DNA from: an uncultured Elusimicrobiales bacterium
GTDB taxonomy: Bacteria; Elusimicrobiota; Elusimicrobia; Elusimicrobiales; Elusimicrobiaceae
Assembly (NCBI GenBank): GCA_944326765.1
Contig: CALVFE010000013.1
Location: 1 to 38,496, forward strand
DNA: 38,496 nucleotides
Reading direction: 5' to 3'
How positions within the stretch are numbered: position 1 is the stretch's first letter; every line of letters begins with the position of its first letter. The translations under genes were made by a program, and so were the position numbers. The notes beneath the pieces were generated by a model, which was given only the letters and a program-made list of their open reading frames with translations, ran no database searches and had not been told where the DNA came from. Of the stretch, positions 78-38,496 are shown piece by piece.

Positions 78-560
78 ATGAAAAAAGGTTTTACATTGAT
101 AGAGTTATTGGTCGTAGTTTTGATTATTGGGATATTGGCGGCGGTAGCGTTGCCGCAGTATCAAAAAGCCGTATTAAAAGCGAGGTTTGTTCGTGCTATG
201 ACGGCGGGAGATGCTTTGTATAAGGCATCGGAGTTATATTATACCGCCAATGGGGTATGGCCTACGCGACTCGATGAACTGGATATCACGCTTCCCGGTG
301 AACAAACTGCAGACAATATAGTAGAGGGGGAAGGATATGAGTGTACCCTGGCGAATTACCAGGAAAACATCGGCAATGCATCTCCTTCCATTATATGTTA
401 CATATCCAATACGAAGATTGCTTTTCGACGGTTTTTTAGCGCAACAGGGAAGCGTTTTTGTTATGCATTAATTTCTTCACAAGAAGGAAATGAATTTTGT
501 AAAACAATGGGAACCTATTTTTCTAAGAACGACAGCTATAATCTGTATGAAATAAAATAA
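78..560 (+). CDS. Type IV prepilin-like protein (PilE/PulG family)
   Basis: Major-pilin or pseudopilin-type subunit, 160 residues. The sequence shows a very short leader (MKKG) followed by the classical prepilin segment FTLIELLVVVLIIGILAAVA. The prepilin peptidase site is therefore G4|F5, and the conserved Glu is the fifth residue of the mature protein. The hydrophobic N-terminal helix runs to about residue 30, followed by a globular domain with four cysteines (about residues 88, 109, 128 and 139) that could form disulfides. Processing by PilD and assembly into a pilus or type II-secretion-like pseudopilus is known for the family. The ATG has a good ribosome binding site, GAGGGG at 66-71. The gene stands alone, closed by a strong terminator, with no assembly genes nearby. 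A second pilin with nearly the same N-terminus lies at 21944-22456. The exact role (major pilin, minor pilin or pseudopilin) cannot be told. Confidence 0.85.
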   Translation: MKKGFTLIELLVVVLIIGILAAVALPQYQKAVLKARFVRAMTAGDALYKASELYYTANGVWPTRLDELDITLPGEQTADNIVEGEGYECTLANYQENIGNASPSIICYISNTKIAFRRFFSATGKRFCYALISSQEGNEFCKTMGTYFSKNDSYNLYEIK

Positions 561-21937: not shown

Positions 21938-21943
21938 TTGCGT

Positions 21944-22456
21944 ATGAGCAAAAATTATCAAAAAACATTCCCCGGCGAAAAAAACGCCGGATTTACGCTA
22001 ATAGAGCTATTAGTGGTGGTTTTAATTATTGGCATACTGGCTGCAGTTGCCTTGCCGCAGTATGAAAAAGCGGTAGAGAAAAGCCGCGCGACTCAAGCGA
22101 TTACCTATTTGGATACTTGGGTAAAAGCCCAACAACTTTATTATTTGGCTAATGGTACTTATATAAATGGTTCCGGTGAAAAGCTATGGCTTACTGCAGG
22201 AATAGAAGCACCTAAGTATGATACAAGTTTATGGTCCCGTTGGATATTTTTTGGTGGGGCAGGGCATAATATAACATTAAGAAGAGAAATCACGGATTAT
22301 TATGAATTAAAAGCCATTATGACATCAGAAGGCGTGCTGCGTATTTGTCTTGGAAATGAGAAATGGTGCAAGGCCATCAATAGCGGAGCGGGGGATTGTA
22401 CACCCGGGGGATCGGTTGATGATCCCGTTTGGTGTTATGCCGCAAAGGAATTCTAA
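21944..22456 (+). CDS. Type IV prepilin-like protein (PilE/PulG family), second copy
   Basis: Prepilin of 170 residues. The leader is longer than in the first pilin: 16 residues ending in KNAG, then FTLIELLVVVLIIGILAAVA with the conserved Glu at mature position five. From there to KAV the two pilins differ by a single residue (Q/E), yet the DNA differs at many third codon positions. The rest of the proteins is unrelated apart from scattered cysteines and aromatic residues; this one has a CYAAKEF end typical of pilin-like disulfide loops. The ATG at 21944 is preferred to a TTG at 21938. There is no Shine-Dalgarno, and a -10 lies six bases upstream. The gene is a single unit between terminators, with no assembly genes near. 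Confidence 0.85.
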   Translation: MSKNYQKTFPGEKNAGFTLIELLVVVLIIGILAAVALPQYEKAVEKSRATQAITYLDTWVKAQQLYYLANGTYINGSGEKLWLTAGIEAPKYDTSLWSRWIFFGGAGHNITLRREITDYYELKAIMTSEGVLRICLGNEKWCKAINSGAGDCTPGGSVDDPVWCYAAKEF

Positions 22457-33899: not shown

Positions 33900-34991
33900 C
33901 TAGAAAGAAAGCGTTTCGATTTTTTCCGGAGTTTTATCCAGCGGCAATACTTGCGCTTTCACGGAGGCGAAGTCGATTTTGCTTAAATCCACCTGCCGGA
34001 TTTGGCTGTTGTTCATGGTGCGGTAGTAGAAGGCCGGTTGGGTCATGTTGGTAACGCTGGTCCATTGGGTGGCGCTGGGCAAGTCGGGTATTTTCTCGCC
34101 GGCGGCAAATTCCACGCCGATGGGAATATCAAAATTATTTAAGATATGAAAGGCCTGCAATACGCCGTCTGCCGCGGTCGGCATAACCGGTGCGGTGTGC
34201 AGGTAGAAAAACGCCCGTACAAAGCGCGAAGGCGGCGTGATGTCGCCCGGCAGCCCCCACATGCCTGCTCCCGCGCCAAAGGCGGAAAGAGTCGTTTCAC
34301 CGTAAGATACGGGTTTTACGTCGCCCGCTTGCAGGTGTACATAGTTTTTTAAATGCGTTACCTGCCACGGAAACGAAGGCGAATTGGTAAATACGCCTAC
34401 GGTGTTCTCATAAATATGCCGCTGCCCGTTGTTCTCGATTTCCAGCACGATACTTCTGCCTGTAGCGTCTGCAATGCGCCAATGTCCGGTAGAGGCGGTT
34501 TCCTGCCCGGGCTGCGGCGGATAAATGGTAACGATATCTATTTTTCTAAGTGCTTGCATCACTTCTTCTACCGTAGCGAAATTCGTTAAAATCCAACGTA
34601 CCAGTTCTACATCGGCTACGGATTTTTTAGCTCGTTTGGGATTAAACGGCGCCAAACTGCCATAACCGGAAAAATAGAAAATCCCGGCAGCTAACCCTTT
34701 TTCGTTGACGCCTTCGCCGATGAAAGGATCCTTTACCACGCTGATTCCAACGGCGCCGTATTTATTGGTCCAAGAAAGACCGTTCTGGCCTTGGGGGGTA
34801 AACGAGGTGTTCTGCTGGCCGCGCGGCATGATAACGAGTTTGCTGTCTAACGAAAATCCGCCCCATTCAATGGTGCGCGCCTGCAGCTGGGCGCCGTCTT
34901 GCGTGCGGAAGGCGATTCCGGTACAAGCATCTGCCGGGATCTGCGAACAAAGCAGTCCGGCGGCCAAGAAACAAGCAAATAGTTTTTTCAT
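33900..34991 (-). CDS. Exported choloylglycine-hydrolase-family enzyme (bile salt hydrolase / penicillin V acylase type)
   Basis: Ntn-hydrolase of 363 residues. A signal peptide ends ADA|CTGIAF, so cleavage by signal peptidase I would expose Cys23 as the N-terminal nucleophile. This is how Gram-negative members of the family are activated. ARTIEWGG near residue 38 carries the Arg of the active site (the family's Asp position is Glu here). GEGVNEKGLAAG near 94 and FTNSP near 202 supply the asparagines, and PPSRFVRAFF near 254 the last Arg. Substrates in the family are conjugated bile acids, penicillin V or acyl-homoserine lactones; a gut origin would favour bile salts. AAGGAGG lies six bases before the ATG. 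It is a single gene. Confidence 0.83.
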   Translation of the reverse strand: MKKLFACFLAAGLLCSQIPADACTGIAFRTQDGAQLQARTIEWGGFSLDSKLVIMPRGQQNTSFTPQGQNGLSWTNKYGAVGISVVKDPFIGEGVNEKGLAAGIFYFSGYGSLAPFNPKRAKKSVADVELVRWILTNFATVEEVMQALRKIDIVTIYPPQPGQETASTGHWRIADATGRSIVLEIENNGQRHIYENTVGVFTNSPSFPWQVTHLKNYVHLQAGDVKPVSYGETTLSAFGAGAGMWGLPGDITPPSRFVRAFFYLHTAPVMPTAADGVLQAFHILNNFDIPIGVEFAAGEKIPDLPSATQWTSVTNMTQPAFYYRTMNNSQIRQVDLSKIDFASVKAQVLPLDKTPEKIETLSF

Positions 34992-35020
34992 ATACTTCCT
35001 CCTTTTCCCTATTATAAAAA

Positions 35021-35047
35021 AGAACCCCCCCTTTGCAGGGGGGAATT
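35021..35047 (-). terminator. Terminator downstream of the metalloprotease gene
   Basis: On the minus strand a run of six G-C pairs (CCCCCC / GGGGGG, loop TGCAAAG or similar) is followed by GTTCTTTTTT. It lies about 75 bases past the stop at 35121. Confidence 0.7.
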
Positions 35048-35120
35048 TTGTATTAGACGCAATAATGTTTTGATCTGTTTATTTGAAAAAAAATACAAGC
35101 GCTCCTTGTTAGAACAGATA

Positions 35121-36675
35121 TTATTTGGAAAAGTAAGACTGCAATTCCCGGTATAAGTTTTGTCTGAAGGAAGTTTCTTTCTTTTTGTTGATTCTTATTC
35201 TGTTGAGTTTAATATCCGGCACCGGGTAATATTTGCGAATATATTCTTGCCAACGGAAAGCCTGCAGAATATATTCGTCCGGCTGGAAATCCGATTTATA
35301 TATGCCGTAATAATTTTTTTTCTCTTTATCAATCAGATCGCGCAGGCCGTCCATTTGAATGATTAATATCGGATTTATGTCGCCGAAGACGGCTCCGTCC
35401 CGCCAAAGCGTATATTGATCATGGTGTTGAATATTGTAGATGAACGAAGTATCGTCTGGTACCGAATAGCCAAAAGCATAAGTGTCATCTAATATGGCAT
35501 AGACGTATAACAGTTGGCCGCGCCAGTCTTTTATCTTTACTAAAATTTGCGCGAGATCAGAATTAAACGAGATTTCACGAATAACAAGAGGAGCATATTC
35601 CTGTACAATCGTGTTTAAAGTCAGCGGAATTTTTTTGCGGTTTGGGTCGCTTAAATCAACCTGTTGATAAATCGCTTCGGGCGTATTTTCTGTTTTCAAC
35701 GGCAGTTGAGGTATTTCATAAGGAACCGATTCGCATTCGTTTGCGGCAATGGTTTTGAGGGCGTTCGGCTCTTTGTAATTAATCTCAAGGGTTTTTTTGA
35801 TGTTTCCGTTCCGACAGAACTCCGTCACATAATATTTTCCATTTATAAACTGGAACGTCGGCTTGCGATTCGTTTGCTTGGCATTTTTAAAAACAATGGC
35901 TGTTTCGTTTTCTTTTTTGCAAAAAGAGGAAAAGGAAAAGTCCGGCAAGGACGGGTCCTGATTTTTCATAACCAGATAAATTGCATTTGCCAAAGCATCG
36001 GCATCGTCGCATGTTAAAGTTATTGCTCCGTTCATTATGGAGGGGCGGATATCGCTGCTGTAGCGGATATCATTTAACTGAGAGCCTCCCGCATAAGAGT
36101 CTGCTATTGCCAAGCTGTGTCCTATTTCATGGGTAAGGACTTTTTGCATAATATCCGGAGTTCTGTTTTTTATGTAAATGATCATAGTGGAAAGAATATG
36201 ACGAAATGTCCCGTCCACATGTCTTTGAAAGTCTTTCCAATAAGAAGAATCTTGATCCGCTAACAATACGGAAAGACCGCCATTATAGATAAGCTCTCCG
36301 TCCTGCGTTTCCGAGGCGACTTTGTCCGACATGCCAAAATCGATAATTTTTTGCATAAACGCGAATTCCGTACGATTTTGCTGGACAATTCTGTCATTCA
36401 GGTTTTTAAACCAGTTTTGATAGGCTTTTTTTTACGCTGATTGGACTTTGGTTTTCCGCTATCGTTATAAAGTTTTCATGCTGGACGTTTTGAATTTCAA
36501 AACGAACTGGTTTCAAATTGACAATACGATGTATGGCATATTCTTCTCCTTCTTGTGGTGCGCTGGAAAGGGGCTTGTCCAGTAAAAAGTAAGGAGTGGC
36601 CATTAAACTGCCGTGGATTAACAGGAGCAGAAATGTTCCTAAAGTCTTGGCTATATATTTAATATGTTTGTCCAT
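35121..36675 (-). pseudogene. Exported zinc metalloprotease-like gene, interrupted by a frameshift at an A8 run
   Basis: Two minus-strand frames form one gene. The first (from ATG 36675) has a signal peptide (KTLGTFLLLLIHGSLMA), runs on for about 60 residues and stops at 36406. The second is open from the A8 run (36433-36426 on the minus strand) to 35121. With seven A instead of eight the frames join as SVKK-AYQNWFKNLNDR and give 517 residues. The second part contains HEIGHSLAIAD, a zinc-protease HExxH with a metzincin-like third ligand (Asp; the usual Gly is Ala), and a C-terminal region of unknown type. No family beyond that is recognisable. Base composition is slightly AT-richer than in the neighbours. 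Either a real frameshift, phase variation, transcript slippage or a sequencing error at the homopolymer explains it. A -10-like TATATT is six bases before the ATG. Confidence 0.7.
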
Positions 36676-36681
36676 ATAGTT

Positions 36682-36687
36682 AATATA
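36682..36687 (-). promoter_or_regulatory. -10-like hexamer six bases before the metalloprotease ATG
   Basis: Minus-strand TATATT, AACTAT, ATG. No ribosome binding site is present. TTGACC (36717-36712) is 24 bases upstream, too far for a standard -35. Confidence 0.3.
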
Positions 36688-36723
36688 CATAAGTAACGTC
36701 TGCATAAAAAGGGTCAAAAGACC

Positions 36724-36840
36724 CAGGTGGAAATGAGTCTTTTTTCATATTTTTTTGACTTTTCGTATGTGGATTTTACAAATCGATGTTTACGGTAAAC
36801 CGATAATTTTTCTAGCAATGATGCGGGCGAAATCCACCTA
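36724..36840. repeat. Inverted and related repeats in the metalloprotease-rmuC intergenic region
   Basis: GTGGATTT (36769-36776) and AAATCCAC (36830-36837) are perfect inverted copies, extending to 10 of 11 with the flanking TA. CAGGTGGAAAT (36724-36734) resembles the first arm. Between the arms lies a perfect GTTTAC-G-GTAAAC palindrome (36788-36800). A TTGACT (36755-36760) and TACAAA (36777-36782) pair could be the rmuC promoter, which would place most of this in the leader RNA. Confidence 0.45.
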
Positions 36841-36885
36841 GAAAAAGTAAAATAAAAAAGTAACAATTCAAAAAAGAGGAATGCT

Positions 36886-38310
36886 ATGGAAACAATCGTA
36901 ATTGGAGTCATTGGATTGCTGGCGGTCGGGTTGGCTTTTAAGGCCGGGCGGGAAAATAACAAAAGAAAAATGGAGTCCGAACGGTTAGAAAAAGAACTGC
37001 TGCTGTTGCGACAAGAAAAACAAGAAATAGATGTCCTGTATCAGCGAACAGTGGAGAGATGTGCTTCATATCAAGGCATCAATGATACGTTGCGCCAACA
37101 AATAGCAACTTTGCAGCAGGAAAAAACCGCTCAAAACAACGATATCAAAAACCTGCAGGAAACCTTGGCCAGCGTGAAAGTAGAACGGGCGGAACTGGCG
37201 ACGGAAAAGAAAAATCTTTCTGAAGAAAAACTTAAATTTAATGCGGAAAAGGAACATCTGTTGGAAACATATAAAAGTCAGTTTGAAACGATGGCAACGG
37301 ATATTTTTCAAAAACAATCCCAGCTTTTTAAACAAGGAAATAAAGAAGAATTAGGAAACGTACTAACTCCATTAAAAGAACAGCTGGCGGAAAAATTGCG
37401 CGATTTTAAGGAAAAAATAGATGCTTATGCTAAAGACCAGCGCGAAGATAAAACCAATTTAAACAATAAAATCCAGTTAATCGAGAAAATTACCACCCGT
37501 TTTGTTTCCAGTATTACCAATCAGGTGCAGGCACGCGGATTATGGGGAGAAACGTCCGTACGCCAGCTTTTGGAAAGTTCCGGCCTCCAGAAAGATGTCA
37601 CTTATTTCGAGCAAATCAGCCAAGATGACAAACGGACGGATTTTATCGTACGGTTACCCAATAATAAATTAATTGTCATAGACGCCAAAACGCTTTTTTC
37701 CCATTATGATTCTTTTATGCAGGCCACCGATGAAGAAACTAAAAAAACACAGCTTAAGGCGCACTTAAATGCCATGAGAGAAACCATTAAAAATTTAGGA
37801 ACAAAAGCGTATCAAAAACAGATCGACAAAATCTGCAAAAAATTAAATATCGAAGAAAGCGGGGATCCGGTGGAAATGGTTTTGATGTATGTCCAGCCGG
37901 AGGGGGCATTAAGCTGTGCTTTGGCGGCAGACTCCTCGTTGTTAGAGTTAGCCAAGCAAAAAAAAGTGGTGTTGGTGTCTCAAAGTACATTGATGGGTGC
38001 TTTGCAGTTAGTGGATGCTTTGTGGCTTAATTTCCGTGATGATGAAAAAAATCAGGAAATTCGTGCGGCGGCGGAGAAGTTTATTGCTTCTTTCGGCGCT
38101 TTTTTTGCCGCTTGGGTTAAAGTGGGAGAAAGGCTGAAAGAAGCCCAGACGGCACACCGGGAAACGATAGATATGGTGGGAAAAGACGCCACGGAAGGAT
38201 TGCTAAAAGAAGCGCAGGAGCTGGCCAATCTACAGCCTTATAAAATTAATGAGAAAACCGCAAAAGTAATTTTGAAAGCGGGGTATGATTTTACCGGAGA
38301 ACGAAAGTAG
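36886..38310 (+). CDS. rmuC: RmuC-family DNA recombination protein
   Basis: Protein of 474 residues. It starts with a membrane helix (about residues 2-18), then a long coiled coil (about 25-150, very rich in Glu, Lys and Gln), then the RmuC nuclease-like domain (about 180-430). Typical segments are QVQARGLWGETSVRQLLESSGL, RTDFIVRLPNNKLIVIDAKT (restriction-endonuclease-like Asp...DAK core) and YVQPEGAL. RmuC limits inversions at short repeats in E. coli; its biochemical action is not settled. AGAGGA lies five bases before the ATG. A recombinase fragment begins directly after it, which is suggestive but not evidence of a functional link. Confidence 0.9.
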   Translation: METIVIGVIGLLAVGLAFKAGRENNKRKMESERLEKELLLLRQEKQEIDVLYQRTVERCASYQGINDTLRQQIATLQQEKTAQNNDIKNLQETLASVKVERAELATEKKNLSEEKLKFNAEKEHLLETYKSQFETMATDIFQKQSQLFKQGNKEELGNVLTPLKEQLAEKLRDFKEKIDAYAKDQREDKTNLNNKIQLIEKITTRFVSSITNQVQARGLWGETSVRQLLESSGLQKDVTYFEQISQDDKRTDFIVRLPNNKLIVIDAKTLFSHYDSFMQATDEETKKTQLKAHLNAMRETIKNLGTKAYQKQIDKICKKLNIEESGDPVEMVLMYVQPEGALSCALAADSSLLELAKQKKVVLVSQSTLMGALQLVDALWLNFRDDEKNQEIRAAAEKFIASFGAFFAAWVKVGERLKEAQTAHRETIDMVGKDATEGLLKEAQELANLQPYKINEKTAKVILKAGYDFTGERK

Positions 38311-38311
38311 A

Positions 38312-38496
38312 CCGTGCCCTCTCCAGCAGCGGGCGCAAAGAACTTTTCGCCGGGCAGACTATAAAAACATGTCCGATGGCGATGCCCAGCGCGAGGCCTG
38401 CATGGCCTATATCGCCAGCCAACGCGGGGAGGGGTGGCATCCTCTTAATACCCATTATGATGACGGCGGCTTTACCGGTGCCAATACGGACAGGCC
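38312..38496 (+). pseudogene. Fragment of a large serine recombinase, lacking its catalytic start, cut by the window end
   Basis: The plus-strand frame from 38312 is open to the window edge and contains QREACMAYIASQRGEGW and YDDGGFTGAN. These are the segments found ~40-80 residues into phage- and transposon-type large serine recombinases. The preceding part of such proteins, with the YxRVS catalytic serine, is absent: the frame upstream reads into the end of rmuC and is not recombinase-like. An ATG lies at 38369, without a clear ribosome binding site. So this is a 5'-truncated remnant or the edge of a rearranged element. What follows is beyond the window. Confidence 0.7.

What the first reader, a model, noticed from the sequence alone, without database searches (positions are those of the whole stretch)
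36406..36460. Metalloprotease gene split by one extra base in a run of eight adenines
On the minus strand, the upstream frame (signal peptide) and the downstream frame (HEIGHSLAIAD zinc site) join perfectly if the A8 run at 36426-36433 had seven A. A homopolymer of this length can be a sequencing error. It is also a classic site for slipped-strand phase variation and for transcriptional slippage, which can restore some full-length product. An exported protease is a plausible phase-variable surface function.
Basis: partly seen in the sequence, partly recalled or inferred. Interest (0 to 1): 0.55.

Follow-up and report, generated by a model that had tools for sequence, protein, structure and literature searches.

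The report
Broken protease gene in gut bacterium
A gene for a secreted zinc protease in an uncultured gut bacterium is interrupted at a run of eight adenines; its nearest relative is also broken, but at another place, so this looks like an ordinary recently decayed gene rather than a switch.

Summary
In detail: on the minus strand an upstream frame (start, signal peptide-like stretch, first strand of the fold) and a downstream 436-codon frame (HEIGHSLAIAD, CDDAD) meet at an A8 run, 36426-36433. The protein belongs to an unnamed, genus-wide, multicopy family of exported metzincin-like proteases in Elusimicrobiaceae gut genomes. Its closest relative in 66 genus genomes (42% identity, also upstream of the same bile-salt-hydrolase-like gene) is interrupted too, by an in-frame TAG at another position. 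In a census of 137 family genes, 9 are broken by mixed lesions; 4 of the 14 genes in the window's clade are among them. The long runs at three lesions are absent from the nearest relatives checked, and the family has fewer long homopolymers than synonymous shuffles. That fits slippage-born indels that were not repaired (pseudogenes) better than a phase-variable switch. The common +1 transcriptional slippage would not restore the frame. In 438 kb of the same genome 28 A/T8 runs lie inside intact frames, so a general homopolymer error is unlikely; an error at this one site cannot be excluded without reads. Verdict: ordinary, likely a recent pseudogene.

The parts
36406..36690 (-). Upstream fragment: ATG (36690 or 36675), signal peptide-like stretch, first beta-strand of the catalytic fold (PVRFEI), then out-of-frame tail to TAA
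   Evidence: strand assignment inferred from the model of L216; no Shine-Dalgarno-like match of 3 or more at either ATG
36426..36433 (-). A8 run at which the two frames meet
35121..36431 (-). Downstream fragment: 436 open codons plus stop; metzincin-like catalytic domain and C-terminal region
36099..36131 (-). Zinc-site motif HEIGHSLAIAD
35997..36011 (-). Family motif CDDAD, shortly after the SIMN Met-turn-like stretch
35314..35321 (-). Second A8 run in the same gene, frame intact across it
33900..34991 (-). Choloylglycine-hydrolase-like gene (CBAH) downstream; same order in the relative G008:C3
36886..38310 (+). Divergently placed RmuC-family gene

Best explanation
The gene is a recently inactivated copy (pseudogene) of an exported metzincin-like zinc protease, one of a multicopy family spread through a genus of Elusimicrobiaceae gut bacteria. 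A one-base indel, probably replication slippage in a short A run, put the two parts out of frame (inferred). The upstream piece keeps the export signal and first strand; the downstream piece keeps the zinc site but has no export signal or evident ribosome-binding site, so neither piece should yield a secreted active enzyme (inferred from sequence). Because the downstream frame has gained no stop, the loss is recent if it is neutral: about 5% substituted sites would give a 95% chance of a new stop.
For: Closest relative, syntenic, also interrupted but by an in-frame TAG between signal peptide and body. 9 of 137 family genes broken, 4 of 14 in the window's clade against 5 of 123 elsewhere (Fisher p 0.0066). 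Lesions are mixed: 8 frameshift junctions and 4 in-frame stops, at different places. The runs at three lesions are not kept in the nearest relatives checked. Long homopolymers are fewer than in synonymous shuffles (A>=8: 16 against 31.6; G/C>=7: 6 against 17.6), as in neighbours. No internal start with a good Shine-Dalgarno near the break. Age bound.
Against: The downstream frame is clean and the zinc and CDDAD motifs are intact. The nearest relative is only 42% identical, and no other genome of the same species could be read, so reversibility was not tested directly. Homopolymers are over-represented at junctions (4 of 8), which a slippage switch would also give. The clade enrichment was noticed before the tree was built and may be partly post hoc. 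Intact clade members exist (10 of 14, plus two in L216).
Confidence: 0.7

Rival explanations
1. Assembly or sequencing error in the A8 run; the gene is intact in the organism.
For: Metagenome assembly of 75 contigs with 2.6% estimated contamination and contigs from other species. Only one base in one homopolymer is at issue; the rest of the gene is clean.
Against: In 438 kb of the same genome 28 A/T8, 1 A/T9 and 188 A/T7 runs lie inside intact frames, and the other long frames of the window are open. The nearest relative is broken by an in-frame stop, which a run-length error does not explain.
Confidence: 0.14
2. Phase-variable contingency locus: slippage in the A8 run reversibly turns the exported protease off and on in the population.
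For: The run lies in the first fifth of the gene, in an exported protein; A8, A7, T7 and G7 runs sit at 4 of 8 family frameshift junctions. Precedent: inlA 5' poly(A) in Listeria (PMC2831843, abstract read).
Against: No such run at the same place in the relative (A5); G082 and G016 runs not kept in nearest relatives; family has fewer long runs than shuffles; nearest relative broken by a stop that run-length slippage cannot reverse.
Confidence: 0.1
3. Transcriptional (or ribosomal) slippage at the A8 run makes some full-length protease.
For: A8 is the shortest A run on which E. coli RNA polymerase slippage was detected (PMC6260861, passages read); A11 in Citrobacter tssM1 gives about 20-25% (PMC4256274, passages read).
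Against: Needs net -1 or +2; +1 meets TGA eight codons after the run. Insertions prevail and deletions in homopolymers are rare (PMC5574713, passages read). A -1 ribosomal shift gives the same wrong frame as a +1 RNA insertion. No conservation of the site.
Confidence: 0.03
4. The two pieces are separate working genes.
For: Both frames are open and adjacent.
Against: The break lies between the first strand and first helix of the catalytic domain (inferred); no internal start with a good Shine-Dalgarno near the break; in 128 of 137 family genes no break was detected.
Confidence: 0.02

Closest known systems
Frameshift pseudogene clusters (GeneTack classification, PMC3711429, abstract and passages read)
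   Same: Few genera, frameshift position not conserved among relatives, no recoding motif that restores the frame
   Different: The lesion set here includes in-frame stops; no annotation of the locus was available
Metzincin metalloproteases (matrixins such as karilysin and MMPs; serralysin; snapalysin)
   Same: HExxHxx(G)xxD and a Met-turn-like SIMN; model of clade member L216 aligns to the karilysin MMP domain, Z 8.8, 135 residues, rmsd 3.4; weak snapalysin match; best profile hits of A1 are serralysin-type proteases, E about 0.03
   Different: No Pfam family above its cut-off for the two window pieces or for the one member whose scores were shown; long C-terminal region; CDDAD motif; the window's clade mostly lacks the motif glycine
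Poly(A) phase variation, inlA of Listeria monocytogenes (PMC2831843, abstract read)
   Same: Frameshift in a poly(A) run near the 5' end of a gene for an exported protein
   Different: Here no strain data, run not kept in relatives, nearest relative broken by a stop
tssM1 of Citrobacter rodentium, transcriptional slippage at A11 (PMC4256274, passages read)
   Same: Interrupted gene with a poly(A) run before the stop
   Different: A8, and the frame needed is not the one reached by the common +1 insertion

Membership tests
Frameshift pseudogene | Reading frame interrupted relative to intact homologues | tested here: met
Frameshift pseudogene | Lesion site not conserved among relatives | tested here: met
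Frameshift pseudogene | No functional product made | not testable with these tools
   no RNA or protein data
Phase-variable contingency locus | Repeat tract kept at the same place in relatives | tested here: not met
   A5 in the one close relative; family tracts scattered and fewer than shuffles
Phase-variable contingency locus | Different tract lengths among cells or strains of one species | not testable with these tools
   no reads; no second genome of the species found
Transcriptional slippage recoding | Common slippage product restores the frame | tested here: not met
   +1 frame meets TGA; needs -1 or +2
Metzincin metalloprotease | HExxHxxGxxH/D zinc motif | tested here: inconclusive
   HExxH and D present, glycine replaced by A in the window; G in 4 of 14 clade rows, 118 of 123 other rows
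Metzincin metalloprotease | Metzincin fold with Met-turn | tested here: inconclusive
   model of L216 member: mean pLDDT 58.5, blocks mostly 65-94 over residues 31-170; Z 8.8 to karilysin, Foldseek best E 5.6e-3; SIMN present
Metzincin metalloprotease | Zinc-dependent peptidase activity | not testable with these tools
   no assay

The most novel reading that the evidence does not exclude
The window's clade of glycine-less metzincin-like proteases is a set of exported proteases whose copies are turned off and on over short evolutionary times by slippage in transient homopolymers, so that each species carries a different mixture of on and off copies rather than a fixed contingency tract.
Probability: 0.07. 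Interest if true: 0.5.

Novelty: new member of a known kind. Interest (0 to 1): 0.2.

Why it matters
As a broken gene it matters little. It does expose an unnamed, multicopy family of exported metzincin-like proteases in gut Elusimicrobiaceae, with frequent loss of copies in one clade. The frame break should not be cited as a phase-variation case without reads.

Tried and rejected
Gly to Ala in HEIGHSLAIAD as a sign of decay: rejected, because 10 of 14 clade rows lack that glycine, including intact ones. Downstream gene with its own start: no good Shine-Dalgarno near the break. General homopolymer error in the assembly: not supported; of the candidate junctions I took six sites (ten frames) to Pfam: two proved to be pairs of different genes (AnmK and GH3; sigma factor and zf-HC2), the others were uninformative, so other broken genes in the sample are not excluded. 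RmuC in viral contigs: nothing. Rfam on the window: 0 matches. Literature: 'Elusimicrobium' with 'metalloprotease' gave 2 papers, irrelevant by their listing; 'Elusimicrobia' with 'phase variation' 4 papers, one used; 'Elusimicrobium minutum' with genome and protease 16 papers, listing only, none used. No match of the C-terminal region to a known fold was seen, but it was modelled poorly and not tested alone. Papers were read only as abstracts and passages.

Full report
Observation. On the minus strand the window holds two frames that meet at an A8 run, 36426-36433. The upstream frame starts at ATG 36690 or 36675, has a hydrophobic signal peptide-like stretch (judged by eye), and ends at TAA 36406-36408. 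The downstream frame is open for 436 codons (36431 to 35124) and holds HEIGHSLAIAD and CDDAD. The two frames differ by one base at the run. A8 itself is common and even depleted in the window (7 matches, 22.6 expected).

What the protein is. No Pfam family reaches its cut-off for either window piece. In the window's own genome (G000, 1.49 Mb, 75 contigs, 87% complete) there is one further weak match, on C69. A search of 66 genus genomes with the closest relative found family members in 59 of 66; with the window protein 31 of 61 genomes had a match, 0 of 24 of them in the neighbouring family f2 (the query is divergent, so this absence is weak). Loci from the named collection carry titles such as uncultured Elusimicrobiales, Elusimicrobiaceae and Elusimicrobium sp.. 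A profile of 12 members hits serralysins and snapalysin weakly, and 8 of 12 members match the matrixin model at E 0.1 or better. A model of an intact clade member, L216:4294-5829, has mean pLDDT 58.5, with block means mostly 65-94 over residues 31-170 and again at 201-250, but 46-56 at 171-200; residues 39-214 align to the karilysin MMP domain with Z 8.8, 135 residues, rmsd 3.4, Foldseek best E 5.6e-3, snapalysin. I infer a metzincin-like protease. By comparison with that model the window's break falls between the first strand and the first helix of the domain, so neither piece holds the whole fold (inference).

The relative is broken too. G008:C3 is the only close relative in the 66 genomes (42% identity). 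It lies upstream of the same choloylglycine-hydrolase-like gene, in the same order. It has a signal peptide-like frame from ATG L004:1261, an in-frame TAG at 1369-1371, and then 469 open codons. At the place of the window's run it has A5 and an open frame. The two lesions differ in kind and place.

Family census. By my check all places listed were covered by fetched loci; they were read with a family profile on stop-to-stop frames. After merging pieces I count 137 genes: 137 rows of the tree, less one row because one gene is present as two rows (G029:C8), plus one gene left out of the tree for too few columns (G021:C6:272682). One contig-edge fragment (G033:C29:5453) was dropped, and a member found later (G086:C5, in L217) and the two in L216 are not counted. 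Genes cut by contig edges are included and could hide lesions. Nine are broken: window, G008:C3, G012:C1, G016:C1:424940, two in G021:C6, G025:C75:5989, G029:C8 and G082:C1. They hold 8 frameshift junctions and 4 in-frame stops by my reading. The tree places the window and G008:C3 as sisters (support 99) in a clade of 14 (support 97), of which 4 are broken, against 5 of 123 elsewhere (Fisher p 0.0066). It is a quick tree, and I had noticed the excess before building it, so this p is partly post hoc.

Slippage as origin, not as a switch. Runs of 7 or more sit at 4 of the 8 frameshift junctions (window A8, G016 A7, G021 T7, G082 G7), where 0.67 would be expected (P 0.005; the stretch lengths were chosen by me). 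That fits slippage, or error, as the source of indels. But nearest relatives lack the runs: A5 in G008:C3, no run of that length in the three sisters of G082:C1 or in G008:C12 for G016; the G021 T7 was not compared. Over 132 protease frames A>=8 runs number 16 against 31.6 in synonymous shuffles, and G/C>=7 6 against 17.6; the 385 neighbour frames show the same (25 against 87.8; 13 against 38.0). So there is no sign that the family keeps contingency tracts. PMC3711429 (abstract and passages read) uses the lack of a conserved frameshift site as a mark of pseudogene clusters.

Rescue. The frame would be regained in RNA by a net -1 or +2; a +1 product meets TGA eight codons after the run. In E. 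coli and Buchnera insertions dominate in A/T runs and deletions are rarely in homopolymers (PMC5574713, passages). The E. coli polymerase showed no detectable slippage below eight A (PMC6260861, passages). A rescue is therefore unlikely, not excluded.

Error. In 438 kb of G000 (20 stretches and the window) 28 A/T8, 1 A/T9 and 188 A/T7 runs lie inside intact frames of 120 codons or more. A general homopolymer problem is unlikely; a single-site error is possible. The assembly is mixed: C28 is 99% identical to G012:C4 and C69 99% to G001:C37. The window's NAD synthase gene is single in G000 and at most 81% identical to other genomes, so the window contig is not an obvious piece of another held species.

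Age and expression. If the downstream frame is neutral, about 66 substitutions (5.0% of sites) would give a 95% chance of a new stop; 64 (4.5%) for G008:C3. Neither ATG of the window gene has a Shine-Dalgarno-like match of 3 or more; of 119 other members 14 also have none.

Verdict. A recently broken copy of a lineage-specific exported metzincin-like protease, most likely a pseudogene (0.7), with error (0.14) and phase variation (0.1) as rivals.

Noticed in passing
window 35000-38300: GC falls from about 0.50-0.52 to 0.39-0.40 at 35 kb, where DNA similarity with relatives also ends (34,905-35,057); protease and RmuC may sit on an acquired stretch. The protease of G008 is also AT-rich (0.39).
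   Followed up: partly
window 36886-38310: This RmuC type (67-73% identity) occurs in only 5 of the other 65 genus genomes; most others have a distant RmuC. Two of the five have a family protease near it (L221, L217).
   Followed up: partly
window 38285-38494: The contig ends in a frame that looks like a serine recombinase piece (motif recalled; no Pfam match).
   Followed up: no
window 36099-36131 and 13 clade members: The clade mostly lacks the glycine of the metzincin zinc motif (4 of 14 keep it, against 118 of 123 other rows) while HExxH, D and CDDAD stay.
   Followed up: partly
L112 (G000:C28) and L002 (G000:C69): The genome bin is mixed: C28 is 99% identical to G012:C4 and carries a second copy of the leuC-CBAH block; C69 is 99% identical to G001:C37.
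   Followed up: yes
L143, G082:C1 about 55285-55403: Protease frame broken at a G7 run right after the signal peptide, rest intact; the three sister genes lack a run of that length.
   Followed up: partly
window 78-560 and 21938-22456: Two pilin-like genes (N_methyl); their 5' parts recur on many contigs of the genome as an interspersed repeat.
   Followed up: partly
window 36711-36743: A terminator-like hairpin with a T run lies just upstream of the protease start on the same strand, though no gene upstream on that strand is evident.
   Followed up: no
L098, L105, L110, L112: Other family proteases, short or in pieces, lie next to the CBAH gene in G012, G021, G016 and G000:C28.
   Followed up: partly
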